DNA of 64,000 bases from Chloroherpetonaceae bacterium. Lineage in GTDB: Bacteria; Bacteroidota; Chlorobiia; Chlorobiales; Thermochlorobacteraceae. Below are positions 20,327-47,429 of the stretch, piece by piece. How positions within the stretch are numbered: the stretch's first letter is position 1; every line of letters begins with the position of its first letter. The stretch covers positions 748,146-812,145 of the forward strand of contig JANRJQ010000010.1 of NCBI GenBank assembly GCA_033763895.1, written 5' to 3'. The notes under the pieces are model-generated. The model had not been told where the DNA came from. It made no database searches and worked only from the letters and a program-made list of their open reading frames with translations. The position numbers and the translations under genes were made by a program.

Positions 20327-20330
20327 CAAC

Positions 20331-23600: not shown

Positions 23601-23621
23601 ATTTATTGAAATAAATTTTGA

Positions 23622-27961: not shown

Positions 27962-28855
27962 TTAATTACTTTTTAATACGTTTCTTATTATTTCAATAAT
28001 TTGTTCAGGTTTGAGAATGCTTCTCGAGCCATTATTGTACCTTGGTGCTCCTCCTATAGTTGAACCACCACCCCAACCCGGTTCTAATTTATTCAATGTG
28101 TATAGAATGGTTCCTTCTTCGCTTACTGGACCGATAGGGAAATTAGAAACGAATTCCGACTTTTTCCCAATCGTATATGCAATTGATCCATCAGCTAAAT
28201 ATTTGTAACAAACCGCTCGATTGAAACCATTTTTATAAAGCTCGTCAAAAATAAAATCATCTGAAAGGGCCATTACAAATAAATCATTTTTATAAGTAAT
28301 TTGATAAGATTTTACGGATTCCTCTTCAGTTGAATTAAAATCGGTATTTTGGGAAATTAGTGCAGATATTCCTTCTAAGCAATCATCAAGTAGCTTATTT
28401 AAATCGGCAGATTGGTATAATTTATTTCTTTTAGATTCATATTCCGATTTCATTGCTTCCTTTCGAAAATATGTAAGAAGTTCATAATTACTTGTAGGAT
28501 AAGCAGGACCGTATGCATCTGCTTTGCCAACTACCTCCACCAATTCTCGAACTCTTTTTTCAAAAATATGCGTAGGGTTTAACAAAAGCCATACAGTTAA
28601 AGCAGTGTCCCCATCAATATCATTGATATAAATATTAAATTCCTGAGGGTCGAAACCCAATAAAAGTGCGTCTAAAACCTGCTCACAACTGGAACGCGTA
28701 GCATGACGAATACAAAGGTCATGATGGTCAAAGGAGTAACGGTTATTTTTGTTATCAATCCAAGGCCCTTGAACATAGCCATCCAGTGCAATTGAATAAT
28801 TTGGTAATTCTTGAAACTCAATTGTTCTTCCGCGTTCAATAATGATTTTTGGCAT
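27962..28855 (-). CDS. DHH-motif protein, possible phosphoesterase
   Basis: The 297-aa soluble protein shows SFDHHD at residues about 41-46, NDIDGDTALTVWLL at about 78-91 and a glycine-rich C-terminal GWGGGSTIGGAPR. These recall the DHH, D-x-DG and DHHA1 GGGH-type elements of DHH/MYG1-like phosphoesterases, which hydrolyse oligonucleotides or cyclic dinucleotides using Mn2+. The motif order (DHH before DIDG) is unusual, so function is tentative. It is the last gene of a tight operon with the vWA-like lipoprotein (13 bp upstream) and the membrane protein. Confidence 0.6.
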   Translation of the reverse strand: MPKIIIERGRTIEFQELPNYSIALDGYVQGPWIDNKNNRYSFDHHDLCIRHATRSSCEQVLDALLLGFDPQEFNIYINDIDGDTALTVWLLLNPTHIFEKRVRELVEVVGKADAYGPAYPTSNYELLTYFRKEAMKSEYESKRNKLYQSADLNKLLDDCLEGISALISQNTDFNSTEEESVKSYQITYKNDLFVMALSDDFIFDELYKNGFNRAVCYKYLADGSIAYTIGKKSEFVSNFPIGPVSEEGTILYTLNKLEPGWGGGSTIGGAPRYNNGSRSILKPEQIIEIIRNVLKSN

Positions 28856-28868
28856 TTGTATTTACTAA

Positions 28869-29789
28869 TTAGGGTTGCTGGTTATCAATAAATTTTACTA
28901 ACTGTGCAATACTTTGTTCAGGTAATTCTTTAGAAAAAATGATTTTATGTCTTTTTATATTCATACTTTCGAACCACTTACTCCAATAAAGAGTCAAAAT
29001 TTCAAGCTCCTTTGTATTGGCTTCAAGTGCCGGAGTTACTTCCATCACGATAACCTCCCATTCTGAAAAATTACCTGCGGGGAGAAGCCCGCCATCCTTT
29101 TCGAAAGCAGGTTTCCAATTTTTTAATGATCTGTATTTTGCAACATTCATCGAGGTTCGAGAATCTCTTTTACTGGAATATCTATTTTCAAATTGTAAAT
29201 ATCCGTCTGTTAGAATAATTAATACATTTCTAAAATTAGAGTTTTTTGGTGCCGTATACCCTTGAAGTTCATGAGCAAAAAAACTCCAAATATCTGCTCC
29301 CGCATAAGTCGGGCTCGTTTGAGCGAGAGTATAGAGAAGATCAACTTGGCGAGAAAGCACTTTCCCAAAGCCCGGTACGTAATCGCGCCGATCAGAAAGT
29401 GAAATTGATTCAACATTGATGTTAAGGCTATCATTCATCAAGAGTATTTGAGAAGAATAAGCGTTTTCGGGTTGTGAAAAGAAAAGTAATCGAAATCTGT
29501 CTTTTGAAAGAATGAAGTACTTTTTTTGGACTTCCATTAAAAAACATTGATACGATGCATTAATCAAAGATTTATCAATAACGGCTTGTTCAGAATTCTT
29601 TTTAGGTGAAATACGATCAGAAAGATCAAGGGCAACAACCATATTGACATGCTTTTGAGTAAGTGAATCAGTATTCATTTGATTATCCGAATCCTGCTTT
29701 TCACTTTCCCCGCAAGCGCTTAATAAAATAATTGAAAGTCCTGACACTAACATTGCGAGGTAATTCTTTGTAATAGATGTCATTTTCAT
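28869..29789 (-). CDS. vWA-like lipoprotein
   Basis: The 306-aa precursor has a lipobox LLSACGES (Cys about residue 26), so it should be anchored in the envelope. The mature protein begins like a von Willebrand A domain: NMVVALDLSDRIS with an incomplete MIDAS (DxSxS would need Ser where Arg stands), later NVLIILTDGYLQF. vWA domains usually mediate metal-dependent protein contacts. It is the middle gene of a three-gene unit, 32 bp after the 430-aa membrane protein. Confidence 0.75.
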   Translation of the reverse strand: MKMTSITKNYLAMLVSGLSIILLSACGESEKQDSDNQMNTDSLTQKHVNMVVALDLSDRISPKKNSEQAVIDKSLINASYQCFLMEVQKKYFILSKDRFRLLFFSQPENAYSSQILLMNDSLNINVESISLSDRRDYVPGFGKVLSRQVDLLYTLAQTSPTYAGADIWSFFAHELQGYTAPKNSNFRNVLIILTDGYLQFENRYSSKRDSRTSMNVAKYRSLKNWKPAFEKDGGLLPAGNFSEWEVIVMEVTPALEANTKELEILTLYWSKWFESMNIKRHKIIFSKELPEQSIAQLVKFIDNQQP

Positions 29790-29821
29790 TTTCGTATATA
29801 TTTATATTGAAGAGATTATCG

Positions 29822-31114
29822 TTAATTAGAGAATTGCGATGAAATATAATCGGTATCGGTAAGGCGTTTATTGAGATACGACTTATATTTCAGTATCAAT
29901 TCATTTAACCTATCTAAGTCGGGCTTTGCAGTTTTACTGTCCGAGTATTTAGAATTAATATAACTTGTCCAGCCGGTGATATAGCTGTCTAAAAAAGCAT
30001 TCAATTCTGAAATGTTTATTAATACAGCACCTTCTTCATAACCAAGCTTCTTAATCATAAACTCGTCTTTCAATATACCTGTATTAAGTTCTGCTACTTC
30101 ATCTAATTTAGATGCTAAATCCTTCTCAAATTCTAATAATTGAGCTGCGCGCTTTTCTTTTGCAAATCTTAAGTGACGGAAAAGGGTTGATTGATGATGC
30201 AATTCACCTACAGCAAATCCCCATACATAATAAACAGCAAAGCCGGCGCAAAGAACCAAATAAAAATTAGAATCACTAAATATCATTGTCCAAATCCATT
30301 TATCTTTTACTAACCCCATCAAATATTTAATTGTGTAAGCATTCTCGGTTATTTTGAGAGCAAGAAAAAAATCAACTATAAGGGCTATAATTAATAAGGA
30401 ATACTTTCTAAATCCGTTTGATCTTGAAAAGTAAGGTGAGGCAGCCATTAACATCATTACAAACGGAAAAAAGCAAACAAAAAATAAAGCACCTCCACCG
30501 GATTTATTTGCCTCAATAAAAGTTTTGGGATTAAACACTTGATTATTTAGTGCTATTAATGCAGTTTCGGTATTGGTTGTTAACATTGAGGAAATATCCA
30601 TCAAAAACGCCATATATATGGCTGAAGCATAAAATGTAAATAGGTATGAGGTAACAAAAATAAACATAAAGAGAATAAAGCCCGTCTTAACCGGGTCAAA
30701 GGAAGATTCTAAGTCAAATTTCTTTGGGTTAATTTCAATATCACTTAATTCACCTTTAAGATTAGCGATTTTGTCTTTTGCTACGGGTATAACATCTTTT
30801 TCAAGATAAGAAATGCGAGAGCGTTTTGTAGAAATGGTTGTTTGAAGCTCTGAAATACGACTTTTAACATCGTTGGCAAGGGTGGTGAGTTTTTTGCAAA
30901 ACAAATCATACATCACAGATAAATACTTTTGAATAACCTCAGGATTTCCGTTTTCTTTACCACAATCTTGAAAACCTTTTGAACGTAGTTCTTCTTGTTC
31001 TGATACCGATAAAGCATTAGGGGTAAATGAGTTGTTTAGCATTGTTGGATTGGTTTTTGATTCTGAAGAAGAAGTGTGATTACCGTTGCCGTTGATGTGA
31101 GAGGTGCTGTTCAT
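29822..31114 (-). CDS. Multi-pass membrane protein with coiled coils, unknown function
   Basis: This 430-aa protein has a Ser/Asn-rich N-terminus, then a coiled coil (about residues 75-130, KLTTLANDVKSRISELQTT). About four to five transmembrane helices follow between 143 and 305, and a second coiled coil after that (FEKDLASKLDEVAELNTG). No GMN motif, so it is not CorA; I do not recognise the family. It heads the unit with the vWA-like and DHH-motif genes. A perfect 14-bp palindrome lies 73 bp before its ATG and is repeated before the Card1-like gene. Confidence 0.75.
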   Translation of the reverse strand: MNSTSHINGNGNHTSSSESKTNPTMLNNSFTPNALSVSEQEELRSKGFQDCGKENGNPEVIQKYLSVMYDLFCKKLTTLANDVKSRISELQTTISTKRSRISYLEKDVIPVAKDKIANLKGELSDIEINPKKFDLESSFDPVKTGFILFMFIFVTSYLFTFYASAIYMAFLMDISSMLTTNTETALIALNNQVFNPKTFIEANKSGGGALFFVCFFPFVMMLMAASPYFSRSNGFRKYSLLIIALIVDFFLALKITENAYTIKYLMGLVKDKWIWTMIFSDSNFYLVLCAGFAVYYVWGFAVGELHHQSTLFRHLRFAKEKRAAQLLEFEKDLASKLDEVAELNTGILKDEFMIKKLGYEEGAVLINISELNAFLDSYITGWTSYINSKYSDSKTAKPDLDRLNELILKYKSYLNKRLTDTDYISSQFSN

Positions 31115-31186
31115 AATTTTACCTGTGAATGAATGTTACTTTGAAAGTGATGCGAATTTATCCCAGTTATAATAGATAGAGGAAAA

Positions 31187-31200
31187 AAGAAATATTTCTT
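31187..31200. promoter_or_regulatory. 14-bp perfect palindrome, candidate operator copy 1
   Basis: AAGAAATATTTCTT is its own reverse complement. It lies 73 bp upstream of the 430-aa membrane-protein start (minus strand) and just past the stop of the 70-aa gene. An identical 16-bp context (AAAAGAAATATTTCTT) recurs at 31484-31499. Confidence 0.5.
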
Positions 31201-31205
31201 GGCCA

Positions 31206-31418
31206 CTACGTATAAACTATAACACGACCCGATATGCGCCCTTTATACTGCTCGCGGCCATCTATATAAACTTTCCCTTGTCCACTGTCGTGATCAAAAT
31301 GTGCATCGCCAGCGTTGTCGGTTCGGGAATCTTGCATACCCCACGCCCAACCAATCGTTACTTTTATCCCTTTGCGCGGTTTTCCGCTACTCTTTTCAAA
31401 AACTGAAATCGTTACCAT
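31206..31418 (-). CDS. Small transthyretin/carboxypeptidase-regulatory-like protein
   Basis: This 70-aa protein reads as a single small beta-sandwich: TISVFEKSSGKPRKGIKVTI, then RTDNAGDAHFDHDSGQGKVYI and GRISGRVIVYT, the pattern of transthyretin-like or CarboxypepD_reg extension domains. No signal peptide. It stands between the two 14-bp palindromes, divergent from the Card1-like gene (81 bp) and 91 bp upstream of the membrane-protein gene, so it may share their control. Confidence 0.7.
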   Translation of the reverse strand: MVTISVFEKSSGKPRKGIKVTIGWAWGMQDSRTDNAGDAHFDHDSGQGKVYIDGREQYKGRISGRVIVYT

Positions 31419-31499: not shown

Positions 31500-32639
31500 A
31501 TGAAGATTGTCATTAGTCTTGTTGGCGGTCAACTCGACCCAAATTTGCTTACACCCTTGCAATTGGAAGCTACGCGCTCAGTTTTATTTCGAACACCGGA
31601 TACCAATCGCGAAGCAAAAAATTTAATAGACGCGCTTGGCGTCAATGGTATTTCGGCAAGTGTACAAGAAACCCCCGCCTTTGATTTTGCTCAAACTCGA
31701 GAAGACATTAGAAAGAAAGTTGAAACCTTAAGGGATGAACATCAGGGTTCAGAAATTTGGATAAACTATACAGGTGGAACGAAAATTATGAGCCTTGCCG
31801 CATTTGAAGTTGCTCGCGAATTAGATTTAAGAACTGCTTATTTAGAACCCCGATCATCATCCCTCCTTACAACGTTAGGTACATTGCCTCAGCCTTCAAT
31901 ACCTATTTCGGTGAAGTTTACGATTGAGGCATTTTTTGCCCTTAAAGGATTTAGTGTTCAAAGAAACAAGTCTTTGGAAACCAATGCACAAACTCGAAAG
32001 GCGTTTACAGAATTTGTTTATGAAAACATTAGAAATTCCGCAATTTTTCATAATAAGTTATTTTCAAAAGTATTTCAATTTAGAATAAAGAATTCTACTG
32101 CGAACAATTATGAAAAGTTGATCGGTACATTTATTACAGAAAATTTTTGGAATAGTATGGTCTCTAAAAATATGTCGGGTTTTCAAGTAAAACTTAATTC
32201 CCAGAGTGCAAATTTTAATACAGGCGCCCAATTAATAGAATATTTCAGCGGAGGCTGGCTCGAAGAATATGTTTTTAATAAATTTTATGATTCTCGCTGC
32301 GCCGATGATGTTACTATCGGGTTGCGGTTTCTGAGTTCCGAAAATGATGTAATGAATGAATGTGATGTCGTGGCGATTAATAAAGGGCAGTCCACCTTTG
32401 TTGAATGTAAGTCGGGTAATTTTAACTCAACCGATATTGATAAATTTCATTCGGTTGCAAAGATGTATGGCGGCGATTATGCAAAAGGGGTTTGGCTTTC
32501 ATATTACCCTATTCCTATTTCTGGAAAAAGTTCTAAAATGAGAAAATTTTCTATGAATAAAATCAATTTAATAGAAGGAATGAAACAGATAAAAAATAGT
32601 CTAAATAATCCTTGCCAATTAGGTGATATCCAGCGGTAA
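31500..32639 (+). CDS. can2: CARF-PD-(D/E)XK nuclease, Card1/Can2-like type III CRISPR effector
   Basis: In this 379-aa protein the N-terminal CARF domain has the ligand-binding signature WINYTGGTKIMSLAAF near residue 90, as in Csm6/Can1/Card1 proteins that bind cyclic oligoadenylate. The C-terminal half is a restriction-like nuclease: GGWLEEYVF, then NECDVVAINKGQSTFVECKSG, giving the acidic and ECK catalytic residues near 285-303. Characterised relatives nick or cut DNA (and some RNA) when cA4 binds. It is the only plus-strand gene of the locus; its stop abuts the convergent NE0113-family gene with no gap. Confidence 0.88.
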   Translation: MKIVISLVGGQLDPNLLTPLQLEATRSVLFRTPDTNREAKNLIDALGVNGISASVQETPAFDFAQTREDIRKKVETLRDEHQGSEIWINYTGGTKIMSLAAFEVARELDLRTAYLEPRSSSLLTTLGTLPQPSIPISVKFTIEAFFALKGFSVQRNKSLETNAQTRKAFTEFVYENIRNSAIFHNKLFSKVFQFRIKNSTANNYEKLIGTFITENFWNSMVSKNMSGFQVKLNSQSANFNTGAQLIEYFSGGWLEEYVFNKFYDSRCADDVTIGLRFLSSENDVMNECDVVAINKGQSTFVECKSGNFNSTDIDKFHSVAKMYGGDYAKGVWLSYYPIPISGKSSKMRKFSMNKINLIEGMKQIKNSLNNPCQLGDIQR

Positions 32640-33845
32640 TCAAATAAATTTTATTTTTCCCGGAGGTAAAGAAATCGTAAAAATTAATCCTTTTCCTTTA
32701 GCGTTATAAGGAACATATTTTGACGATAAAAGGGCAGGAGAGATAATACGGCCAACTTTTGTTTTTATTTTAGAAATCAAAGATCGTACTGTTGCCGGTG
32801 TTAAACTATGAGTGGTTAATTTGGTAATAAAAGGATCTTTAGTGTCATATTTAAGTTCAGAGATACACCAATTTTTGATTTCTTCAGCAGTATCGTCCTT
32901 AATCTTATTTTTATGCGTTGAATGTGTAAAATCAACCTCTTTTAATCCTTTTTTGATTTGACTGGCAATAAACGCAAATAAAATAAATTCTAAACGGGCT
33001 AATTTTAAATCCTTTCCGGCAATATGAGCTTTAGGAATTTTGTGGGCGTTTTTTTTATCGAAATCAAAGAAAAATTCGGGCAAACCCGAATCTTCGCCAA
33101 TGAGCAATTGAGCGGTATTAAATAAATCGTGATAGCTCATTGTGCTGAAGTTGTACCCACCGTTTTCTAAAATCGGCCGTAAACGAACAAAAGGTAACTC
33201 CGCCAATTCGAGTTTTACTTTCTGGGCATCAATCGAATTTCCTGAACTGTCTTTAATCTCATAAGTTTCGGTTCCTCTCTTACCTGTAACTAAATGTGGA
33301 TTTTTGGTAGGGTAATAAAAATCATTATTACTTTCCAACTGCGGGTGTTCAACTAAAATATGTGAAAGTCTGTCGCCCGCTCGACCAAAGACATTTAGTG
33401 CCATCATCATAAAAGAACTCATCGTTTTTCTTCCGCCTGCAAGAGAACAATAAACCGGAGGCATGTTTTGAGAAGTGTGTTCTCTTATAAAATGAAACAA
33501 AAAATCGGCGAAAATCTCGTTTTCCGTAGAATTTCGAATATCCTCCATTTCACTATTTTCGGAATTCTTCACCGCGTGAACCCAAACATGACTCGGCTCT
33601 AAGGTCAAACTGTACTCATTTTTCATTTTCATGAGCATCCCTAATTCGCCAAGAAGTGCCGCTTCCACTGTCCCTTTTCCTCTTGCTGTTGTAAGAATAT
33701 GCAACTCCGAAAATTGAACATTTTGAAGAACGGAATAAACATAAAGCGTCTCGGTGATGACTTGTGGCGAAGTCCCCGCAAGACAAATGAGTTTTGGCTG
33801 AACTGATTCTAACTGTTGAACCGAGGGTGCTTTCTTCTTTTTCAT
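32640..33845 (-). CDS. NE0113-family CARF protein (type III CRISPR accessory)
   Basis: This 401-aa protein has N-terminal LICLAGTSPQVITETLY and LTTARGKGTV, and the hallmark SLAGGRKTMSSFMMMALNVF followed by GRAGDRLSHILVEH and DFYYPT. These match the CRISPR-associated NE0113 family of CARF proteins. The C-terminal ~150 residues (from about 250) are basic and helical and could be a winged-helix-like module (inference). Relatives are thought to sense or degrade cyclic oligoadenylates. It converges on the Card1-like gene with directly abutting stop codons. Confidence 0.85.
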   Translation of the reverse strand: MKKKKAPSVQQLESVQPKLICLAGTSPQVITETLYVYSVLQNVQFSELHILTTARGKGTVEAALLGELGMLMKMKNEYSLTLEPSHVWVHAVKNSENSEMEDIRNSTENEIFADFLFHFIREHTSQNMPPVYCSLAGGRKTMSSFMMMALNVFGRAGDRLSHILVEHPQLESNNDFYYPTKNPHLVTGKRGTETYEIKDSSGNSIDAQKVKLELAELPFVRLRPILENGGYNFSTMSYHDLFNTAQLLIGEDSGLPEFFFDFDKKNAHKIPKAHIAGKDLKLARLEFILFAFIASQIKKGLKEVDFTHSTHKNKIKDDTAEEIKNWCISELKYDTKDPFITKLTTHSLTPATVRSLISKIKTKVGRIISPALLSSKYVPYNAKGKGLIFTISLPPGKIKFI

Positions 33846-34662: not shown

Positions 34663-36873
34663 TTAGAAGGGAAGGCTGTAAGGTTCATAAAACGGACGCT
34701 TTCCAGCAATCACCGCTTTTACCTGTTTTACCTGTGCTTCCATTATCCGCCTAAAGTTTAATTTTACCGAGGCGATTTTGTACACCGATTCTTCTGCCAT
34801 TCGGTTTTCAAAAATTTCTAAATACCGCTTTCGGCCTTCATTACTTAAAAAACACCCTGACCCATCTTTTTGATAATAAAAATCCGAGTTTTTTATCAAC
34901 CCGCGGTTCAAAGTATAAATCACAAGTGAATCCATCACACACCGAAATTCTTCAATTAAATCATTAATCAAGGCAGGGTTTCCCCGCTCCTCGGTATGAA
35001 AGAATCCAAAATACGGAGAAAGCCCGTGAATTTTACAAAGCGAATATAAATTGGAATGAAGCAAAGTATAAGAAAAGCTAAGCAATGAATTTACCGGGTC
35101 GGTGGGTGGGCGTTTGACACGGCGAAAATTAGGCTGAAAGAACACCGATTCTCGCTTAAAGTGAAGCCCGAATATATCGAAATAGACCGCAGCGGCTTTG
35201 CCTTCATACCCACGTAAAGAATCAAAAGAATCCGTTCGTTCAGCTTTATGTGCCAATTCATTTAGCAAAACAAGTGATGTTTCAATGTGCTCGCGGTATT
35301 CAGGTAAGTTTCCCCAACCATTTGTTTTACGGCGCTGAATCATTGTGCGGGAATTTGAGATTTTGGTGGAAATCATTCGGCGAGCGAGATCGAAACAAAA
35401 TTCTTCGTCAAGTGAACGAAGATATTGGTCTCTCTCAAATAAGGTGTTATCGGCAGTTGTTGCTTCAAGCCGGCCAAAGTAATATCCATTTTGCGATAAA
35501 TACGCAATCGGGATATGATTTTGAAGGCAATGTTGAATTGCCGGAGTTGTAAGAGTGACATTCCCTAAAACAATAATTTGCTCCACTTTGCGCGCGTGCA
35601 GTTCGGTTAGCTTCATGCTACTTTTTTCAACCAAAAAGCGTTCCCCTTCTTTCCGCAAAAGGCTGCCTTGCTCTTGAAGGTAGAGCGTTCTTAAGAATGG
35701 AGAATACAGTTTTTTTAATTCATTCAGTTTTGTTTCTTCGAGTTCATCCTCACGCTTTTGCAAGTTGGAGAGGAAATCATCGAGCTGTAGAGGTTTTCCT
35801 TTGAAGTTTTCCAATAACTTTTGGCCAAATTCGGTTTGCAGGAGTGTGGCCTCGGTTACTTCAATTTTTTTTCCGTCGTCAGTTTCAAGGTTAAAGAAAT
35901 GACTTTCAGGGTGGTTGTATTCATCGGGAATATCGGCTTCGGGGTATGGCGGTTTTGGAATAACTTTACGCAGTTTTAATCGGCCTAATTTATCATACCA
36001 TTTTTCGCCGTGCATTTTGGTTGGCAAAACCAACGAACGAATAAAGAGATACCCGAGGTATTTGAACCCTTCTGAAAAGTGCGTGATTCGCGTTTTTTCG
36101 GGGTGAAGATTGAGTTTCAATTCCGCTAAAACCGATTCCGTCAGTTTGAGGGCTTCTTCAGCTTGGGGCTTTGATTTGCAGAGTACGAGAAAGTCATCGG
36201 CATATCGAATAATTTTGAAATTTTCCGCTTCAAGGCGTTTATCAAGTTTATCTAAATACAAGTTTGCCAAAAGTGGTGAAATGGGTGCGCCTTGAGGAAG
36301 TCCAATCGGATTAGGAATGCGTTTTTCGCTGCCGTAAACAATATCGGCTTTAAGCCACTCACTTATCAGTTTGAAAAGCAGGTCATCATCGGGGAAGAAT
36401 TCTTGAAATCGAGCGAGAATTAAGTCGTGCTCAACCGAATCAAAAAAGCGCGTGATGTCGGCATCCAAAGCCCAAAGGTATCCTTCGTTGCGCAGTTTTT
36501 CGATTTCATCGGCGGCATTGAGCCGCGAAAGACCGGGTCGGTAAGCAAACGACGATTTTGAAAGTTGTTCTTCAAGAATCGGGTTTAAGACAATCGTGGC
36601 CGCGGTTTGAACAATTCTATCCGGAACGGTTGGAATAAGGAGAATCCGCTCTTTTCCATCGGGTTTTTGAAACACCATTTTTAGGAGTGCTTGCGCTTTG
36701 TACCTACCGGTTTGAAGCAGGTGGTGTAACTCGCGCAAGCTCTCCGGCATTTTTTCCGAAAATTGATCGATCGAAAACCCGCCGACACCCGGCCGGCCGT
36801 CGTTGGAAGACACTTTTTGCCAAGCCTTGGAAAGTGTTTCTTCTAAAATAATTTGCGAATAAAGCCAACCCAT
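34663..36873 (-). CDS. cas1: Reverse transcriptase-Cas1 fusion
   Basis: The 736-aa protein joins a group-II-intron-like reverse transcriptase to the integrase Cas1. RT motifs are ALDADITRFFDSV (about 135-147), GLPQGAPISPLLANLYLD (191-208), catalytic YADD (224-227) and HPEKTRI. Cas1 starts near residue 395 with LTTPAIQHCL; its metal-binding residues appear intact: Glu in RGYEGKAAAVYF (about 557), His in FFHTEERGNPA (about 626) and acidic LINDLIEEFR. There is no N-terminal Cas6 domain. With Cas2 it should integrate spacers, some copied from RNA. cas2 ends 12 bp upstream. Confidence 0.96.
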   Translation of the reverse strand: MGWLYSQIILEETLSKAWQKVSSNDGRPGVGGFSIDQFSEKMPESLRELHHLLQTGRYKAQALLKMVFQKPDGKERILLIPTVPDRIVQTAATIVLNPILEEQLSKSSFAYRPGLSRLNAADEIEKLRNEGYLWALDADITRFFDSVEHDLILARFQEFFPDDDLLFKLISEWLKADIVYGSEKRIPNPIGLPQGAPISPLLANLYLDKLDKRLEAENFKIIRYADDFLVLCKSKPQAEEALKLTESVLAELKLNLHPEKTRITHFSEGFKYLGYLFIRSLVLPTKMHGEKWYDKLGRLKLRKVIPKPPYPEADIPDEYNHPESHFFNLETDDGKKIEVTEATLLQTEFGQKLLENFKGKPLQLDDFLSNLQKREDELEETKLNELKKLYSPFLRTLYLQEQGSLLRKEGERFLVEKSSMKLTELHARKVEQIIVLGNVTLTTPAIQHCLQNHIPIAYLSQNGYYFGRLEATTADNTLFERDQYLRSLDEEFCFDLARRMISTKISNSRTMIQRRKTNGWGNLPEYREHIETSLVLLNELAHKAERTDSFDSLRGYEGKAAAVYFDIFGLHFKRESVFFQPNFRRVKRPPTDPVNSLLSFSYTLLHSNLYSLCKIHGLSPYFGFFHTEERGNPALINDLIEEFRCVMDSLVIYTLNRGLIKNSDFYYQKDGSGCFLSNEGRKRYLEIFENRMAEESVYKIASVKLNFRRIMEAQVKQVKAVIAGKRPFYEPYSLPF

Positions 36874-39403: not shown

Positions 39404-39517
39404 TTACAATCTTTCCGATTCAACCGTTATCGTCAGGTTGCTCTCTTCGGCAACGACGGCGTGCGGTTCAAGAATTTGGTTCAGAGCAAAATAATTTTTG
39501 TTGCGTTGAGAATCATT
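39404..39517 (-). other. Possible C-terminal gene remnant
   Basis: A 38-codon open frame without a start codon lies just past the Csm6-like gene and ends at 39404: NYFALNQILEPHAVVAEESN, then LTITVESERL and stop. Composition looks protein-like, which suggests the tail of a deleted gene. The family is not recognised. Confidence 0.3.
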
Positions 39518-40919
39518 TTAATGTTCCATCTATATTAAATTCTTTAGGAAATGAAAATTTAATTAAATCATCATCTATTTTATTCCTAGGAAATTCAAAT
39601 TTTAAAACTGATATGCACGTTTTATAAAATTCATCGGCAGCTTTTTTTCCAATAGGGTTTGTTTTATGAACCATAGAATTTCGCCTTATTCTGAGATTAT
39701 GTAATTTATTAATTAAATCTGGTTGATATATTTCTTTTTTTGCATTGATATAATCACAGAATGATGGATCATTGTTGTTTTCTATAACAGTAGTTAACAA
39801 ATGCTCCATTGATTGTGTAAGTCTGATAGTAGCATCATTGTAACGAGCCTGTTCAATATACCTTCGAGCATCAATAATTAAATTTAATGCAAAATAATAA
39901 GGATCATCATTGAGAATAGATTTAAGCAAAGATATTAAATCGCCAGAGAGAAATTCAGTATGTTCTTTAATATTATCAAAATTAAGTGCGTCCCAAAGTT
40001 GTAAGCATTTGGAAATCGAATACATTTTTTCAATCGCTTCTAATTCCGAAGTAAGTCCAAACTGTTTGGCTTTTGATTCAAGATTATTTTTCGCCTTTTC
40101 AAAAAGCTGTTGAGCGGCGGCGTAGTTACCATTCTTGAATAGTTCTTTTGCTTGTGTGATAAGGTCAATATTGTAAAGGTCGTAGGGGTTTTCAAGTTTA
40201 TTGAGAAATTCTGTCCCGCATTTGGGTTTCCCGTCTGCATATTCTTCAAAATCCACATAAAAAATATCAATGTCTTTTTCAATCGCTACGGTTAAAAACG
40301 CCGAAGCATCTGCCGATTTTTTCCCGCCCGTAATATCAAGCGCGATTCTGGCATCTGATTTTTCTTTTCTGATTTCTGCAATGATTTCTCGAACACGCTT
40401 GAAGGTATCTATTGAACCGATTGATTCAACCGCACGAGATATTGGTTTAACCGTAATGTTTTGTGAGGGGTCTTTGTATAATTCAAAAATTTTTTCAAAA
40501 CATTGTAAAGGTGTATTGGGTTGAATATTCATTACCTTGTAATGTGCGGCGCTTTCTTTTGTAACGATTGGATAGACGGAATTTGGAGAAAGTGCGAGAA
40601 TTGTGTGTAAAAGCGGTTCGGGAGAAAAGCCCACAATCGTTATGAGGGCATCAAAACTGTTGGCAAGACTCAATACTGGTAAGCCACTTGCATTATTTGC
40701 TTTTTGCCGGGAAAGAACGGTTTTGAATAAAGAAAGAGATTTCTTAAAGTAAGCATTGTTATTTTGCTCATCTTTCTCATATCTAATTCCCGTTAATTTT
40801 ATGCCGAAGTAAATTGAAAAATCAGTTGATTTATCCGCCTCTTTCGTCCATTTATCTAACCCATCATTTTCAGATTCAGGTAGCCACTGTTTGCGTTTAT
40901 TGAGAATATCCGCTTTCAT
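39513..40919 (-). CDS. Csm6-like CARF-HEPN ribonuclease
   Basis: The 468-aa protein has an N-terminal CARF-type domain with ALDITGGKKSADASAFLTV (about residues 193-211) for cyclic oligoadenylate binding. A helical region follows (EQARYNDATIRLTQSMEHLL), then a HEPN-type R-X4-H motif in RRNSMVHKTNP (about 425). Family resemblance is to the TIGR02710-type Csx proteins. It should cut RNA when the Cas10-made second messenger binds. Its ATG overlaps the csm5 stop by 4 bp, so it is the last gene of the csm operon. Confidence 0.85.
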   Translation of the reverse strand: MKADILNKRKQWLPESENDGLDKWTKEADKSTDFSIYFGIKLTGIRYEKDEQNNNAYFKKSLSLFKTVLSRQKANNASGLPVLSLANSFDALITIVGFSPEPLLHTILALSPNSVYPIVTKESAAHYKVMNIQPNTPLQCFEKIFELYKDPSQNITVKPISRAVESIGSIDTFKRVREIIAEIRKEKSDARIALDITGGKKSADASAFLTVAIEKDIDIFYVDFEEYADGKPKCGTEFLNKLENPYDLYNIDLITQAKELFKNGNYAAAQQLFEKAKNNLESKAKQFGLTSELEAIEKMYSISKCLQLWDALNFDNIKEHTEFLSGDLISLLKSILNDDPYYFALNLIIDARRYIEQARYNDATIRLTQSMEHLLTTVIENNNDPSFCDYINAKKEIYQPDLINKLHNLRIRRNSMVHKTNPIGKKAADEFYKTCISVLKFEFPRNKIDDDLIKFSFPKEFNIDGTLK

Positions 40920-42763
40920 AAAATCTTTACTTTTGTGATTTTTCCATCTTTAACCTCTAAAATTTCAACTGCCACTATTTCACCCTCCCTCTTCATTTTA
41001 TTAGTTTCTACGAAGAGCGAATTTCCTTCATACTCCAAAGTAGTTGGCTTATAGTTAACTGTTTTAATTACCTTCATTTCAATTTTATCACCTTTTTTAT
41101 AAGAAACAATTCTTGGCTTTGATTTTTCGGCGTGTTTCAAAATTTTGTTTGCTTCTGCTTTTGATTGAGCAATTTCTTTTTCGGTTGCAGGCTTAGGTTG
41201 AAAACCACCACGATGAAATGAAGTATTTTCCCTTTTTTCATTGCCATCTGGGAGTGGGGTATTCGTAACTGCAATTTTTGCCTGATTGATATCAGGTAGT
41301 TCTCCGTTTGGCAGAATGGTGATTTTGCACCAACCAAGCGGCGCAATTGCATTCTGCCCTTCAACAATCAGACAGCGTGATTTGGGTGCGATTGGCGACC
41401 CGTTGTGTCTCACTAAGTCTCTTATCCTTACTCGCTGTGGCATTGTGAGATGGAGAAATTGCGTTTTGCTCATAAAGCCGCCGCCCCAACCGGTGCGGAA
41501 TAAGACACTTTCAGGTGTTAAGCCAAATCTATTTTGGTAAAGTGAATAAATTTGATTTGTATAAACTTTCAATTTCGCGGTGCGTTTATCGTTTGGATTA
41601 ACATCGTTTGGTATTGTTGTTAGCCCCAGATAAAAGTCTTTTTCCTCAAAGTCCGCAACGGCTCTGAAAAACTCATCAACAGTTTTCAGGAGATTCAGAA
41701 CAGACTGCAAATAAAAAGGAACACCGGTTGGAAAGAATTCTGAGGCAAGTTGAAGGTCTATAGAAATTTTGAATCGCGCTTTTGTTTTTGCAGGAGCGCA
41801 TTGAAGATTTATATCAAATTTTTTTTGATAAGATTGGTTGTTAGGTGGTGTCCCGTTTGCATCTTTACAAACTGCTCTCGCTTTTTCATTTTTCAAAATT
41901 ACATTACCATCAAAATTTGCATCGCTTATCTTAACGATGCGGAAGAAATCGCGTAACGTTTCGTTCGCCGACTGCCAGCGTTGATTAAATTCTCCTAAAT
42001 AAGTTTGTTCTTCTGAAGTAGCATTTTTAGGTATTATTTTATTCGGCTTGATTTCCGTAAAGCTTTTAGTATCGACTTTCTCGTCAAGATTGTTAGGCTG
42101 TTTTGAGAAATGCTCCTTGTATTTTTTTTTATCGCTATCACGTAATCTTGAAGCGGCAGTCAAATTGTAAGTTACAAATCCATTTAGCCAAGTATTTTTT
42201 GTAGCATCGGATAAAATTTTCCAAAGAACTGCGTTTCGTATTGCGCCCTTTATTGAACTGCCGGGAATAAAGTGTTTGCCGTTTCCATTTTGTACAAATT
42301 TATTTCCATCGGAAATGTAGGTTATTCCTTTGGCAATATTTTTTGCAATCTCTTTTTTTTGTTCAATGCTGCCTTTTAGAAGTCCGACATTTTCCAAAAA
42401 GAATTGAAGGGACATTTCCTTGAAGAGAGAAAATTCTTTGGTATCTCTATCGCGATTGACTTTTTCATTATAATTGAGTCCAAAAGTATTGCAAAAATTG
42501 CCAAACACTTGCGAGTTATCAAATGAATTACCCCTTGCAAAGTATTTCTCATACCATTCTACATAGTCATAGCTTAGCTTTTTATTTCCTGTTTCGTCAA
42601 ATGTGGATTCATAAATAAATTTACAAAGTTCATCATTATTCACTGAATACAAAGTATCGTCTACTTTCAAGAAACCTTCCCCATAGTTCACATCTTTGCC
42701 TTTAATAAAAAGAGGCGTCAGGGTTTCAAGTTCAATTATTGCAGATTCCACATTGTAGGCCAT
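40916..42763 (-). CDS. csm5: Type III-A RAMP protein Csm5
   Basis: This 615-aa RAMP protein opens with IIELETLTPLFIKGKD and has the family's loop FIPGSSIKGAIRNAVLWKIL (about residues 165-184), a feature of Csm5, the subunit capping the crRNA 3' end. It is longer than typical Csm5 (about 350-400 aa). The extra C-terminal part (from about 540, IVSYKKGDKIEMKVIKTVNY) could be an OB/S1-like RNA-binding extension. It lies 3 bp after csm4 and overlaps the Csm6-like gene. Confidence 0.85.
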   Translation of the reverse strand: MAYNVESAIIELETLTPLFIKGKDVNYGEGFLKVDDTLYSVNNDELCKFIYESTFDETGNKKLSYDYVEWYEKYFARGNSFDNSQVFGNFCNTFGLNYNEKVNRDRDTKEFSLFKEMSLQFFLENVGLLKGSIEQKKEIAKNIAKGITYISDGNKFVQNGNGKHFIPGSSIKGAIRNAVLWKILSDATKNTWLNGFVTYNLTAASRLRDSDKKKYKEHFSKQPNNLDEKVDTKSFTEIKPNKIIPKNATSEEQTYLGEFNQRWQSANETLRDFFRIVKISDANFDGNVILKNEKARAVCKDANGTPPNNQSYQKKFDINLQCAPAKTKARFKISIDLQLASEFFPTGVPFYLQSVLNLLKTVDEFFRAVADFEEKDFYLGLTTIPNDVNPNDKRTAKLKVYTNQIYSLYQNRFGLTPESVLFRTGWGGGFMSKTQFLHLTMPQRVRIRDLVRHNGSPIAPKSRCLIVEGQNAIAPLGWCKITILPNGELPDINQAKIAVTNTPLPDGNEKRENTSFHRGGFQPKPATEKEIAQSKAEANKILKHAEKSKPRIVSYKKGDKIEMKVIKTVNYKPTTLEYEGNSLFVETNKMKREGEIVAVEILEVKDGKITKVKIL

Positions 42764-42766
42764 AAT

Positions 42767-43804
42767 TTAATCCTCCAAATTGAGTTTGAGCGGCACGGAA
42801 AAAGCGTAGCCATAACGATAAACCTTATGAAAGCCTTCCCATTTTGGCGTGTTTTGTGGTGTAATGTCAACCAATTTTCCAATCAGTTCTTTTTGAAATA
42901 CGCTCCCTTCGGAAAGCATTGAAACGGTTTGGCGTTTCACTTGCGCGCCAACGGAAAGCGAGCCTGTCCAGCCTTTTCTCAAAATGAGGTTGTGAGCAAC
43001 GGAGGTTTGATAGGGTTCATCAGGTTTTGGACAGCATAGCGAGAGCAAGCAATACGCATTTGATTCAGGTACGCCGTTTAATAAATTCCATTCAGGCGGT
43101 ACTTGGTTTAAACCAACCAAAATCGGCTTCTCCGAAAGTCCGCCCAAACCGATATTTCGGTTTCCACCGATTGCGCCTGTTTCAAAGATGATTTCAAAAA
43201 TCTTTTCGAGTGCTTTTTTTGTCTGTTCATCGGCCTTTAGGAAAAAGTATAAACCGGCTTTATCTTTTCCGTGAGTTTCAAAGTAAGTAATCCCTGAATA
43301 AAAAAGTTGCGAAGCCATCGAGATTCTATCGAGCGTATTGTGCGGACGAATTGCACCACTTGAAATTCCTTTTGGCTTTTCGCCTATATCGCTTACATTA
43401 TCTGCATTGAATTCTATCCAATTTTTGAATGCTTCAAGTGTAATAAAACGGGTTTTTTTCACGGTTTTCCCGTATTGTTCAATTTCGATGGTTCTATTTG
43501 GGTTGATTTTAGTAAAGGAATATGGGACAGAAAGCGGCTTTGGAAGCCAATACTCTGACCCTGATTTGGTTAAGGGAAAAGCCGATGAGATTTTGAATAG
43601 AGGATTTCCATTAGTAAATGACTTAAGAAAAGTATCAAAAGAAATTCCCTCTACTTCTCCTAAAATCGCCCAGTGATTACAAATCGCCGCCCAAAGCGTA
43701 TCGGAATGGATAAAATCTTGCGTTTCTTCAATACCTATAGCCGCATTCGCTGCACCAATGTGCAGTGCGTGCTTGAAATAGAGCGGAACAAAGTAGGTGT
43801 TCAT
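42767..43804 (-). CDS. csm4: Type III-A RAMP protein Csm4
   Basis: The 345-aa RAMP subunit binds the crRNA 5' tag and Cas10. LYFKHALHIGAANAAIG near the N-terminus and FIHSDTLWAAICNHW are the usual Csm4 signature; GGNRNIGLGGLSEKP is the glycine-rich loop. It lies 12 bp after csm3 and 3 bp before csm5 on the same strand. Confidence 0.92.
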   Translation of the reverse strand: MNTYFVPLYFKHALHIGAANAAIGIEETQDFIHSDTLWAAICNHWAILGEVEGISFDTFLKSFTNGNPLFKISSAFPLTKSGSEYWLPKPLSVPYSFTKINPNRTIEIEQYGKTVKKTRFITLEAFKNWIEFNADNVSDIGEKPKGISSGAIRPHNTLDRISMASQLFYSGITYFETHGKDKAGLYFFLKADEQTKKALEKIFEIIFETGAIGGNRNIGLGGLSEKPILVGLNQVPPEWNLLNGVPESNAYCLLSLCCPKPDEPYQTSVAHNLILRKGWTGSLSVGAQVKRQTVSMLSEGSVFQKELIGKLVDITPQNTPKWEGFHKVYRYGYAFSVPLKLNLED

Positions 43805-43816
43805 AGCAAATCAAGG

Positions 43817-44767
43817 TTAAGCAGCTTTTTTATCTTTTCCTTCATCTTTCTTTAAAGATGAAGGAATTTGAATTTGTTTTATGACAATATCAATTGTAGT
43901 CGATTTTCCTTGTTCTTTTGAATCACTTGGCGTATTTATTTTTTCTTCATCTGGTTTCTTGTTTATCTCGTCCTCCGATTCTTGAATTTCTTTGATAGCC
44001 CCAAAAGTCTCTGATTTTAATGGGTTAAGTGCAAATTTCACTTGACCGTGCCCGCGTGAAGTGTTTCCGCCAAGTCCTTCATGCTCTTGAATTTGTTCTA
44101 ATGCCCATAAAATATTTTCAATATCTTTTTTTATTGAAGATTGACTTGGCTTAAATATTTGGTATGATGTTTTTTTTTCATCAGTTGCAAATGTCATTTC
44201 TTGTATTTTGTAAATGATTTCAAAGCCGAATTCCGCCCCTGCGGGTACGCGCTCAATCGTGCGGGGTAAGGCATGTGCGGTAATACGGTCAACGGCAATT
44301 TCCATTTTTGCTTCGGTTTTTGGCAAATTGTTTTCCATAAATGATTTTCTCGTTGTATCCGTGTAAAGTGCGTCGCGCACGACCAAAACGGAGGGTACAC
44401 TTTCATAAGAGGCAGAATTTCCAAACACGCGACAGACTTCTGAACTCATCGCGTCAATTGTGGATTGCGCTTTATTCTGATTATAGTTTTTATCATCATA
44501 CATCTCCATCCAAATTTCATTTGTCATTGGAGAAAAGACTTTTGTAGTTTTCTTCTCTAAGAGAGAGCGCATTTTCCCTCGTAACGAACTTCCCGGAATG
44601 TAGGGTTCGTTGGTAACAGGATTTTTTATTACAGGATTATCAATTCCTCCTTTGTCAATTGAATCGGCTGTTCCGCCGATATGCAAGCCAGTAATAGCTT
44701 TAATTGTACCTGAAATTTTGATATAGCCGAGTAATTTGATTTGGCGAGTTGTATTTGTATTGGACAT
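43817..44767 (-). CDS. csm3: Type III-A backbone RAMP ribonuclease Csm3
   Basis: The 316-aa subunit forms the crRNA-guided filament and cuts target RNA every six bases. ITGLHIGGTADSIDKGGIDN contains the aspartate (about Asp43) corresponding to the catalytic one, followed by YIPGSSLRGKMRSLLEKK; GLGGNTSRGHGQVKF is the glycine loop. It is about 80 residues longer than common Csm3: the last ~75 residues are a charged Lys/Glu-rich tail (INKKPDEEKINTPSDSKEQG) likely disordered. It lies 14 bp after csm2. Confidence 0.93.
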   Translation of the reverse strand: MSNTNTTRQIKLLGYIKISGTIKAITGLHIGGTADSIDKGGIDNPVIKNPVTNEPYIPGSSLRGKMRSLLEKKTTKVFSPMTNEIWMEMYDDKNYNQNKAQSTIDAMSSEVCRVFGNSASYESVPSVLVVRDALYTDTTRKSFMENNLPKTEAKMEIAVDRITAHALPRTIERVPAGAEFGFEIIYKIQEMTFATDEKKTSYQIFKPSQSSIKKDIENILWALEQIQEHEGLGGNTSRGHGQVKFALNPLKSETFGAIKEIQESEDEINKKPDEEKINTPSDSKEQGKSTTIDIVIKQIQIPSSLKKDEGKDKKAA

Positions 44768-44781
44768 AATGGTCTCCTTTT

Positions 44782-45240
44782 TTATTTATCTTTCTTTTTG
44801 GTGTCAAATGTGCTGTGGTAGTCAAGAATCGCTTCAAAAAATTCAACGAATGTTCTTAAATCTGAAACCGTTTTAATTTTAGGCGTAGAGACGGCAAAAA
44901 TTTCATAGAGTTCCTTCAGACTGTCTCGCTCAGAACTGCCTGCTATCTTTGGTAATAGGAATTTCAATTTGTGCTTATCAATAAATCCATCGTTGGCAGT
45001 TGTTGCATCAGGGTTGCTCATACGATTGGCCTGTTCAATACTTTTGACATATCTGTAAAAACGATTTAGTTGAGTAGATGTAACTTTTATCGTTTTAGCG
45101 ACAGTAGCCGCATAGTTCGGCAACAAATCTGAATCATTGAGTTCGCTAAATTTTTGACAATTCTGGATTGCATTTTTCACATCATCTAACTTGGGTAATG
45201 TCCCAAATACAGCGGTGAAATCAAATGATTCATTTGACAT
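44782..45240 (-). CDS. csm2: Type III-A small subunit Csm2
   Basis: This 152-aa helical protein carries the Csm2 pattern: KITSTQLNRFYRYV-like segment (TKVTSTQLNRFYRYV region), then KLKFLLPKIA, and VSDLRTFVEFFEAILDYH at the C-terminus. The small subunit lines the complex and helps position target RNA. Its ATG shares a base with the cas10 stop (TAATG), indicating coupling. Confidence 0.9.
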   Translation of the reverse strand: MSNESFDFTAVFGTLPKLDDVKNAIQNCQKFSELNDSDLLPNYAATVAKTIKVTSTQLNRFYRYVKSIEQANRMSNPDATTANDGFIDKHKLKFLLPKIAGSSERDSLKELYEIFAVSTPKIKTVSDLRTFVEFFEAILDYHSTFDTKKKDK

Positions 45241-47429
45241 TATTTAGTCCTCCTTAAGTATGAAAGCCAGTTAAGAGCAATGTGGAAATGAGACATCCAA
45301 TTTTGTTTGGCTGGATCATTGGCATAAATGTATGTGGTTAAATCCGTGAAAAGCTTTGGATGAGTTTCAGAGTATTTTGAAATTTGAGTTTCAACTTGTT
45401 TGAGAACCCGTGCCATAGTAGGCAAGTGCATTTTTCCCGTTTCTTGATGCTTTTCGATAATTGCGAACCATTTTTCAATGGTTGAGTAACTGAATTTATT
45501 TACTTCAAATACGATTCTTCCATTTGCATTTTTGGTTTCACCACACTTGGCATAAACTTTCATCAGCTGTAGCAGAAATTGGTTTGCAAGTTGCCATTTC
45601 ATTGAGAGCATATATCTTTCTTTTTTGAGTAGGCGGTTTTGGCGTTGGGCTTTGTTATCATCAAAAAATAAACCTATTCTGTTTTTATGGGGATTACTTT
45701 CGCCTTTATCTTTATCATTCTTCGCTACGCCTTCCGCCTCGCCCGATTTCTTCGCCATTTGGTAAAGTGGGAATTTTGGATGATGAAGCGTTAGTCCGCC
45801 GGAAATTCCCAGACGATTTGAAATTTGATTGGCATCGCCTCCCGTGAAGCGGTGAAAACATTTTTGAATATCAAAGGCAAGTTCAGCGGTTTCGTCCCAC
45901 GCCCCAATGATAAAAAGGTCATCGCCGCCCGCGTAAATCACAGAAACATTTCGCCCGTTTGAATAATCTTTACCGAGAATGTTGGTTTGTTCAACCCCGT
46001 TGAAAGTTCCATTGCAGATTTGATTCAAATAACCTTTGAAGAAAAGATTAAGAAGCCGTGATTTTTGTGAAAGCTCTTGCGGGGTTTCGATGTCTTGAAA
46101 GTTTTTTCCAAGATTATCCACATCCATTCGTAAAGCTCCGATGAGTTCCGCACCGCAAGAACTTGCAGCTAAGCCTTCAAATGTGGCGGTATCATATTCG
46201 ATTTCGTCACTTTGTTCTATTTTTCTAACATCATCGTGAATTGCTTTCAGTTCAGTGGATTTAGCATTTTCGGAAAGGTCGCCGTGCTTTCTGACATAAT
46301 TTGCATAGAAAAGTGGATAACAGCCTTCTTCAAAGCCGTTGATTTTCCAGCGAGGACTTTGGGTCGACTTACCGTCTATGTAATAATAAGCTGATGAGGA
46401 ATCTTTTTTCGGAAATTCAAAATAATTTTTATTTGAATCAGGTGTGACATCTGAGCGATAGATATACTTGGCTGTAATCAAATTATCCCCGATATGAAAT
46501 TGATGGTAGCAACTTTCAGATGCCCAAGTATAGTCCTCAAGTGATTTTCGTTTTTCTTTTTTATTAAGCACATCCTGCATTGATATTTTTTCTGATGGCT
46601 TTACAACATCGTCAGGAAGAGCAAACATTTCTGTAGGAGGTAAGTCATCCCGCCTCGTGATTTGGCATTCCGTTTGAACGGTTGTTTGCTTCGGCATTTG
46701 CGGCGTAAAGAAACCACCCAATTGATTCAAAAACTTTCGGCGTTTTTGTTTATCCAAGTTTTCGGATTGCGCTTTTCGTGCCTCCGCAAATTTTGAAATG
46801 TCTGAAAACGGATGTGCATCAAGCGCGATAAAAAACTTGCCTGAAAATTCCTGCTTTGCCCATTTATTTAATACTTCACGGAAATTATTAACAGTATCAC
46901 GATGGGATTGCATATTGGGCATGAGCAAACTGAACCCGCCGCCGCCTGAATAAATGATTTGATAACGGTTGTCGCCAACAAGTTCATAAATGATATGCTC
47001 CGTAAGCAGTTCGAGCATAAATGAGCGGGCGCGAAGCGTTTTGAGAGCGCCCTTTGAGGAAATGGTATAAACCGTGTCTTGAATGCCTGAAAAATCCGCG
47101 CTGACAAGCAGGAAGGGGTTATTTTTTTCTCCTTCTTCCTTACAGTCGTTTATGGCGGCTTCGGTTTTCAGCGCATCATACAGCGACACTGTCGGTCTTT
47201 TTTCGCTGGCGATAAACGACCCATATTGTTCAACATCTTGTAATGTGTTGATTTGGTCGTTCGGAAGCTGCGACTTTGTCGGAATGGGCTTTGGAAAGTT
47301 GATTGTTTTGAAATCAAGCTGAACGGGTTCAAAAGATGTTTCTCCTCCAAACGGATTTTTCAACGGCTTAAGTTGAGCCTTGTTCTCAAAAATTTCATTT
47401 GCTTTTTTTATCAATTCGTTCAGGTTCAT
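45240..47429 (-). CDS. csm1: Type III-A Cas10 (Csm1) lacking the HD nuclease domain
   Basis: About 730 aa. Palm 1 starts near residue 107 (FLLVSADFSGIQDTVY) and has LRARSFMLELL and YSGGGGFSLL. Palm 2 (GALRMDVDNLGKNF, about 433) carries the cyclase motif YAGGDDLFII (GGDD about 503-506). It should make cyclic oligoadenylate on target binding. The first ~100 residues contain no HD motif, so the usual single-stranded DNase is absent. The start is taken as ATG 47429, which overlaps the TGA of the upstream Cas10 fragment (ATGA); a GTG lies at 47435. Confidence 0.93.
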   Translation of the reverse strand: MNLNELIKKANEIFENKAQLKPLKNPFGGETSFEPVQLDFKTINFPKPIPTKSQLPNDQINTLQDVEQYGSFIASEKRPTVSLYDALKTEAAINDCKEEGEKNNPFLLVSADFSGIQDTVYTISSKGALKTLRARSFMLELLTEHIIYELVGDNRYQIIYSGGGGFSLLMPNMQSHRDTVNNFREVLNKWAKQEFSGKFFIALDAHPFSDISKFAEARKAQSENLDKQKRRKFLNQLGGFFTPQMPKQTTVQTECQITRRDDLPPTEMFALPDDVVKPSEKISMQDVLNKKEKRKSLEDYTWASESCYHQFHIGDNLITAKYIYRSDVTPDSNKNYFEFPKKDSSSAYYYIDGKSTQSPRWKINGFEEGCYPLFYANYVRKHGDLSENAKSTELKAIHDDVRKIEQSDEIEYDTATFEGLAASSCGAELIGALRMDVDNLGKNFQDIETPQELSQKSRLLNLFFKGYLNQICNGTFNGVEQTNILGKDYSNGRNVSVIYAGGDDLFIIGAWDETAELAFDIQKCFHRFTGGDANQISNRLGISGGLTLHHPKFPLYQMAKKSGEAEGVAKNDKDKGESNPHKNRIGLFFDDNKAQRQNRLLKKERYMLSMKWQLANQFLLQLMKVYAKCGETKNANGRIVFEVNKFSYSTIEKWFAIIEKHQETGKMHLPTMARVLKQVETQISKYSETHPKLFTDLTTYIYANDPAKQNWMSHFHIALNWLSYLRRTK

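What the first reader, a model, noticed from the sequence alone, without database searches (positions are those of the whole stretch)
27962..31418. Candidate undescribed module: membrane coiled-coil protein, vWA-like lipoprotein, DHH-motif protein and a small TTR-like protein
Three genes are packed with gaps of 32 and 13 bp, and a fourth small gene lies next to them under shared palindromes, immediately beside type III CRISPR effectors. Known parallel: some type III systems pair a membrane effector (CorA) with a DHH phosphodiesterase (NrnA) that clears the SAM-AMP signal. Here the membrane protein is not CorA and the DHH motif order is odd, so it could be a different membrane effector plus signal-clearing pair. 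This is speculation that is cheap to test.
Basis: inference. Interest (0 to 1): 0.6.

Follow-up and report, generated by a model that had tools for sequence, protein, structure and literature searches.

The report
Membrane–vWA module recruited by CRISPR
Two neighbouring genes, one for a stalked inner-membrane protein and one for a lipid-anchored adhesion-type protein, form a widespread but unnamed bacterial pair that sits inside type III CRISPR immune systems in several lineages, so it may be an unrecognised way for these systems to act on the cell envelope.

Summary
The four genes and their gaps are real. Only two form a conserved module: the 430-aa membrane protein (TMCC) and the vWA lipoprotein. 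They are adjacent in 99 of 99 surveyed loci that have both and are fused in a Runella type III-B locus. None of the four proteins has a significant Pfam, NCBIfam or PADLOC match. TMCC is modelled as a 4-helix membrane bundle on a long cytoplasmic coiled-coil stalk with an invariant Asp in TM3. The partner has a true vWA fold (Z 14) with an invariant MIDAS-like site. Most copies (60 of the 80 closest) sit behind a TerB gene, usually with a histidine kinase and response regulator. A second set lies inside or against type III CRISPR loci: this window, Runella, four Ignavibacteria, Geobacteraceae and one unclassified bacterium. In this genome a 14-bp palindrome occurs exactly twice, before Card1 and before TMCC, suggesting co-regulation. 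The DHH gene is not part of the module: its only relatives found are in phage contigs, and it does not match NrnA or RecJ profiles. The TTR-like gene is an orphan. Best reading: an envelope output module plugged onto different sensors, including type III signalling. The effector role is inferred, not shown.

The parts
29822..31114 (-). TMCC: 430-aa inner-membrane protein, 4 TM helices with a long cytoplasmic antiparallel coiled-coil stalk; core of the module
   Evidence: ORF; AlphaFold2 model pLDDT 87; homologues next to vWA in 99 loci; Asp248 in TM3 and Gly381 invariant in 61 of 61
28869..29789 (-). vWA-domain lipoprotein, 306 aa; core of the module
   Evidence: Lipobox Cys26 (54 of 59 homologues); vWA fold Z 14.0, integrin I domain Z 12.9; DLSDR and TDGY invariant
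31187..31200 (.). Palindrome AAGAAATATTTCTT, 72 bp upstream of the TMCC start codon; candidate operator
   Evidence: One of only two exact copies in the whole genome
31486..31499 (.). Palindrome AAGAAATATTTCTT, abutting the Card1 start codon; candidate operator
   Evidence: Second of the two genome copies
31500..32639 (+). Card1-type CARF-PDDEXK nuclease (type III effector), divergent neighbour that shares the palindrome
   Evidence: Pfam CARF_Card1 1e-10 and Card1_endonuc 5e-10; PADLOC CARF4--CARF_PDDEXK 2e-48
32640..33845 (-). NE0113/Csm6-family CARF protein; also near TMCC-vWA in Ignavibacteria loci
   Evidence: TIGR02584 6e-46; PADLOC CARF5 7e-69; L056, L065, L066, L075
34269..34453 (.). 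Short CRISPR array, 3 repeats of 38 bp
   Evidence: the repeat finder
34663..36873 (-). RT-Cas1 fusion; cas2 follows at 36886-37182 and a cas6-like gene at 37213-38001
   Evidence: PADLOC RT 4e-86 and Cas1; cas2 and cas6 by sequence and position
39513..47435 (-). CARF-HEPN effector and Csm/Cas10 operon; Cas10 (45240-47435) has an intact GGDD motif
   Evidence: PADLOC CARF1--CARF_HEPN 4e-113; Cas10 palm PF22335 3e-33; ORFs
27962..28855 (-). DHH-motif protein, probably co-transcribed here (13-bp gap) but not part of the conserved module
   Evidence: No relative in 393 other genomes of the phylum or in 21 genomes/records with the pair; relatives only in phage contigs
31204..31418 (-). 70-aa small beta-rich (TTR-like by eye) orphan ORF between the two palindromes
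   Evidence: No family match; no relative in 197 other genomes or in plasmids

Best explanation
The TMCC and vWA genes encode a two-part trans-envelope output module. Shown: they are an obligate gene pair, sometimes fused; TMCC models as a 4-TM bundle with a long cytoplasmic coiled-coil stalk; the partner is a lipobox vWA protein with conserved MIDAS-like residues; the pair is attached to different signalling genes in different lineages, one of which is type III CRISPR. Inferred: in the type III loci, target RNA recognition makes Cas10 produce a nucleotide messenger; a CARF protein beside the pair (NE0113- or Card1-type), or TMCC itself, passes the signal to the stalk; the change crosses the TM bundle, whose invariant Asp could sit in an ion path, and reaches the vWA lipoprotein outside. 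The outcome would be a disturbed envelope (depolarisation or wall/outer-membrane damage) and slowed or dead infected cells. In this genome the pair is probably co-regulated with Card1 through a palindromic operator found nowhere else. The DHH gene downstream is a local addition.
For: Pair adjacent and on one strand in 99 of 99 loci, median gap 2 bp; TMCC-vWA fusion inside a Runella type III-B locus. Type III context: L056 Cas10-Csm-Csx2-Csx20-Card1-NE0113-TMCC-vWA-cas1-cas2; L065 the same block; L075 the same block behind a Cmr operon, so the interference module changes while the accessory block stays; L066 Card1-NE0113-TMCC-vWA; L055 beside Cas1/Cas2; L104 CARF-RelE, Cas6, TMCC, vWA; L074 Csx20 beside TMCC-vWA, with Cas10-Csm-Card1 at the edge of another contig. 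Eight of about 80 near a type III locus against about one expected (rough binomial 6e-6). Unique shared palindrome. Structures. TM helices are the best conserved part and Asp248 is invariant in 61 of 61.
Against: No CARF, SAVED or other messenger-binding domain was found in TMCC or vWA, so the trigger is unknown. Most family members have no CRISPR nearby and sit with TerB and usually a two-component system, so defence is not the general role. Some non-TerB relatives (L036, L069, L143) have no cas gene within about 10 kb. The TMCC fold gave no specific match, so a channel is a guess. The type III loci of Ignavibacteria share ancestry, so independent cases number about five. No experiment exists.
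Confidence: 0.45

Rival explanations
1. Envelope sensor rather than effector. The vWA lipoprotein and TMCC detect damage or phage attachment outside and signal inward, tuning type III expression or a two-component response.
For: In 60 of the 80 closest loci the pair lies behind a TerB gene, mostly with a TPR-histidine kinase and a response regulator; vWA domains commonly bind ligands; a long stalk can transmit either way.
Against: In three type III loci the pair sits among output genes between CARF effectors and cas1-cas2 rather than beside a regulator. The histidine kinase already provides a sensor in the larger clade.
Confidence: 0.25
2. Passenger: a stress or envelope-maintenance pair that travels in defence islands and is physically but not functionally linked to type III loci.
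For: Most relatives are unlinked to CRISPR; mobile defence islands collect unrelated genes; the TMCC-vWA family is absent from the 97 other genomes of the window's order, so it was acquired.
Against: Recurrence in about five lineages, conserved position in a block whose interference module is swapped, a fusion within one locus and a two-copy palindrome shared with Card1.
Confidence: 0.2
3. One reading: a membrane effector plus a DHH phosphodiesterase that clears the signal, like CorA-NrN.
For: 13-bp gap to the vWA gene; conserved Asp/His residues in a 4-member family.
Against: No co-occurrence elsewhere; no NrnA/RecJ profile match; the phage relative L136 has NHH in place of DHH.
Confidence: 0.05

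Closest known systems
Type III membrane effectors Cam1, Csx23 and CorA (PMC10808066, PMC11014256, PMC10600005)
   Same: Membrane protein encoded with type III systems and expected to disturb the membrane after Cas10 signalling
   Different: Those carry a CARF, a dedicated messenger-binding domain or a CorA fold; TMCC shows none of these and has an obligate vWA lipoprotein partner
CRISPR-linked vWA clusters of the deep-clustering survey (PMC10910872)
   Same: That paper reports vWA-related systems near CRISPR with transmembrane proteins, among others; this pair may be among its unnamed clusters
   Different: The named vWA cases there are MoxR-VMAP ternary systems; the supplement could not be opened here, so overlap is undecided
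CorA-NrN SAM-AMP system (PMC10600005)
   Same: Membrane gene beside a gene with a DHH motif in a type III locus
   Different: No CorA homology; the DHH-motif gene is not conserved with the pair and does not match DHH phosphodiesterase profiles
TerB/TerY stress systems (from general knowledge)
   Same: The larger clade has a TerB gene directly before TMCC, and the pair has a vWA protein
   Different: No TerD/TerC found in the neighbourhoods; the vWA part here is a lipoprotein; type III members lack TerB
Bacteroidota T6SS membrane complex TssN/TssR (PMC10781749)
   Same: A multi-TM inner-membrane protein with a cytoplasmic part paired with a lipoprotein
   Different: TssN has five TM helices and a globular EccD-like domain; no T6SS genes were recognised at the loci examined

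Membership tests
vWA domain | vWA (Rossmann-like) fold | tested here: met
   VIA-align Z 14.0 to 9pd4_E (rmsd 3.1, 179 aligned), Z 12.9 to integrin I domain 1n3y (rmsd 3.2, 175 aligned); Foldseek E 8e-5
vWA domain | Canonical MIDAS DxSxS...T...D | tested here: inconclusive
   DLSDR and LTDG invariant; third Ser of DxSxS is Arg. The search patterns came from these motifs, so their invariance is partly circular
Bacterial lipoprotein | Signal peptide with lipobox Cys | tested here: met
   LLSAC at residues 22-26; Cys26 aligned in 54 of 59 homologues
Type III CRISPR accessory | Recurrent location inside or against type III loci | tested here: met
   Window, L003, L055, L056, L065, L066, L075, L104
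CARF/SAVED effector | Own messenger-binding domain | tested here: not met
   No CARF or SAVED model hit for TMCC or vWA in PADLOC, Pfam or NCBIfam at E up to 1
Type III effector | Messenger-triggered toxicity or immunity | not testable with these tools
   Needs biochemistry and phage assays
CorA-NrN SAM-AMP system | CorA-family membrane protein | tested here: not met
   No CorA match; 4 TM helices with an N- and C-terminal stalk
CorA-NrN SAM-AMP system | Conserved DHH phosphodiesterase partner | tested here: not met
   Absent from every surveyed relative of the pair
DHH phosphoesterase superfamily | Sequence-profile match to NrnA or RecJ | tested here: not met
   hhalign probability 0.05% and 0.66% against 11 NrnA-like and 19 RecJ proteins; thin 4-row profile
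DHH phosphoesterase superfamily | DHH fold and metal site | not tested

The most novel reading that the evidence does not exclude
A single trans-envelope output device, with a stalked 4-TM protein driving an outside vWA lipoprotein, is exchanged between a two-component/TerB system, a sigma-factor-like cassette and type III CRISPR, giving CRISPR an effector that acts on the periplasm or outer envelope rather than on nucleic acid or the inner membrane alone.
Probability: 0.3. Interest if true: 0.8.

Novelty: new variant of a known kind. Interest (0 to 1): 0.6.

Why it matters
Known type III outputs cut nucleic acids or proteins or permeabilise the inner membrane. A recurrent TM plus vWA-lipoprotein pair would extend that to a device reaching the outer face of the envelope. 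The same pair occurs in hundreds of Bacteroidota species under a TerB/two-component context with no known function, so working out one would explain the other. It also offers a candidate for type III loci that have a ring nuclease but no recognised effector (31 such loci in PMC12409355).

Tried and rejected
DHH as module member: rejected. TTR-like gene as member: orphan. CorA identity: no hit. A known fold for TMCC: only generic coiled-coil matches, best Z 12.0, under the level that means something for helical models. PDB sequence search with TMCC and vWA profiles: coiled-coil noise or nothing. AU test of one type III clade: it rejected a single clade, but this is uninformative because L059, a near copy of L055 on a truncated contig, was left unlabelled. 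Conserved palindromes upstream of TMCC in other type III loci: none stood out. Literature searches found no paper that describes this pair, within the open-access library only. The paper listing 39 new cas families was not held.

Full report
Observation. None has a significant match in Pfam, NCBIfam, PADLOC or PHROGs. The neighbours are a Card1-type CARF-PDDEXK gene, a NE0113-family CARF gene, a 3-repeat CRISPR array, RT-Cas1, Cas2, a Cas6-like gene, a CARF-HEPN gene and a Csm operon with a Cas10 that keeps GGDD.

Which genes belong together. TMCC and vWA both matched one protein on a Runella plasmid: a 704-aa fusion, 22% and 27% identical to the two window proteins, lying in a type III-B locus next to a CRISPR-associated primase-polymerase, Cas2 and Cas1. 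A concatenated profile then found the adjacent pair in 18 further genomes among 394 of the phylum. A scan of 84,980 species genomes with the vWA alignment gave 373 relatives, of which the 80 closest were fetched. In 79 of those 80 TMCC lies directly upstream; the other contig begins at the vWA gene. Over all loci with both as separate genes the pair is same-strand in 99 of 99, median gap 2 bp. The DHH and TTR genes have no relative in any of these loci; the DHH gene has none in 393 other genomes of the phylum (where the window's own genome served as positive control).

Contexts. In 60 of the 80 fetched loci a TerB-like gene precedes TMCC, usually with a TPR-histidine kinase, a response regulator and small genes further up. 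None of these 60 has type III genes within the fetched flank; one (L089) has a Cas1-like gene that looks like type II. A second context is type III CRISPR: Stygiobacter L056, Melioribacter L065, Ignavibacterium L066, Melioribacteraceae L075, Geobacteraceae L055, unclassified L104, Runella and the window. L056/L065 (Csm) and L075 (Cmr) carry the same block Csx20-Card1-NE0113-TMCC-vWA-cas1-cas2 behind different interference genes. A third context (L046, L053, L057, L061) has a small family (F18), a sigma-like gene and a Lon-C-like gene; an F18 relative is also found four genes upstream of cas10 in Melioribacter, whose TMCC-vWA sits beside Csx20 at a contig edge. Of 19 genomes checked, nearly all from the non-TerB group, 12 encode Cas10 somewhere.

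Phylogeny. In a concatenated tree of 83 pairs the TerB/two-component copies fall in one side together (SH-aLRT 90) and all type III copies fall outside it; the label needs 5 changes against a shuffled mean of 8.7, 0 of 500 as low. Long branches join several type III rows, so the number of recruitments is not settled; the AU test is not informative.

Chance. If a type III locus and its flanks fill about 1.2% of a genome, 8 of 80 has a probability near 6e-6. This is rough: the 80 were chosen for similarity to a type III-linked query, and four of the loci share ancestry.

Structure. TMCC (61 sequences) is predicted at mean pLDDT 87: TM helices at about 141-171, 207-229, 235-265 and 282-305, with helices 58-128 and 282-363 forming a long stalk and a tip that holds invariant Gly47 and Gly381. 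The stalk is placed in the cytoplasm because the fusion carries a further hydrophobic segment before its vWA part and the vWA gene encodes a lipoprotein; this topology is inference. The TM helices are the most conserved region and Asp248 in TM3 is invariant in 61 of 61. PDB comparison gave only coiled coils. The vWA model (pLDDT 86.5) matches vWA domains at Z up to 14. DLSDR and TDGY are invariant, but the search patterns came from those motifs, so that is partly circular.

Regulation. AAGAAATATTTCTT occurs exactly twice in the 3.55 Mb genome, 299 bp apart: one copy abuts the Card1 start codon, the other lies 72 bp before the TMCC start codon; the reversed control pattern has no copy. A shared operator is the simplest reading; a 16-bp direct repeat flanking an inserted small gene is the alternative.

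DHH gene. Relatives: a 485-kb uncultured phage genome (28%) and two more viral contigs. They share LDG[YF], [FM][DN]HH, NDxDxD and WGGxxxIxGxPR, so a metal site is plausible, but one member has NHH and hhalign finds no NrnA or RecJ similarity.

Mechanism. Shown: an obligate, sometimes fused pair, with modelled structures, in several contexts. Inferred: output of a signalling chain, triggered in type III loci by a nucleotide messenger through a CARF neighbour and acting on the envelope. Confidence in a real type III-linked module is about 0.85; in the effector mechanism about 0.45.

Novelty. Membrane effectors of type III are a known kind; a vWA-lipoprotein-coupled one was not found described, but PMC10910872 reports unnamed vWA plus transmembrane clusters near CRISPR, so priority is open.

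Noticed in passing
window 34269-34453: CRISPR array of only three 38-bp repeats between the NE0113 gene and RT-Cas1, despite a complete adaptation set and Cas10
   Followed up: no
window 34663-36873: Reverse transcriptase-Cas1 fusion, which suggests spacer capture from RNA; L055 of Geobacteraceae has a Cas1 most similar to it beside its TMCC-vWA pair
   Followed up: partly
L132:3938-4858, L133:5983-6918, L136:4932-5855: Unnamed phage protein family with LDGY, FDHH (NHH in one) and WGGSNTIGGSPR motifs, shared by a 485-kb phage and the window gene
   Followed up: partly
L046, L053, L057, L061 and L144:8404-11929: Cassette of a small protein (F18), a sigma-like protein and a Lon-C-like protein that lies next to TMCC-vWA in some genomes; a similar set lies upstream of cas10 in Melioribacter. 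Possibly an undescribed type III accessory set
   Followed up: partly
L043:2076-8815: Conserved Flavobacteriia operon: TPR-histidine kinase, response regulator, DUF1508, HSDR_N-like, SH3, DUF6804, TerB, TMCC, vWA; function unknown
   Followed up: partly
window 20254-20327: tRNA-Lys about 7.6 kb from the module; possible edge of an acquired island
   Followed up: no
window 23160-24065: Two adjacent, clearly related genes of 146 and 147 aa: a tandem duplication of an unknown family
   Followed up: no
window 22439-23155: Protein that looks like a PP2C-type phosphatase (by eye: AVADGVSNS and ATDGF motifs)
   Followed up: no
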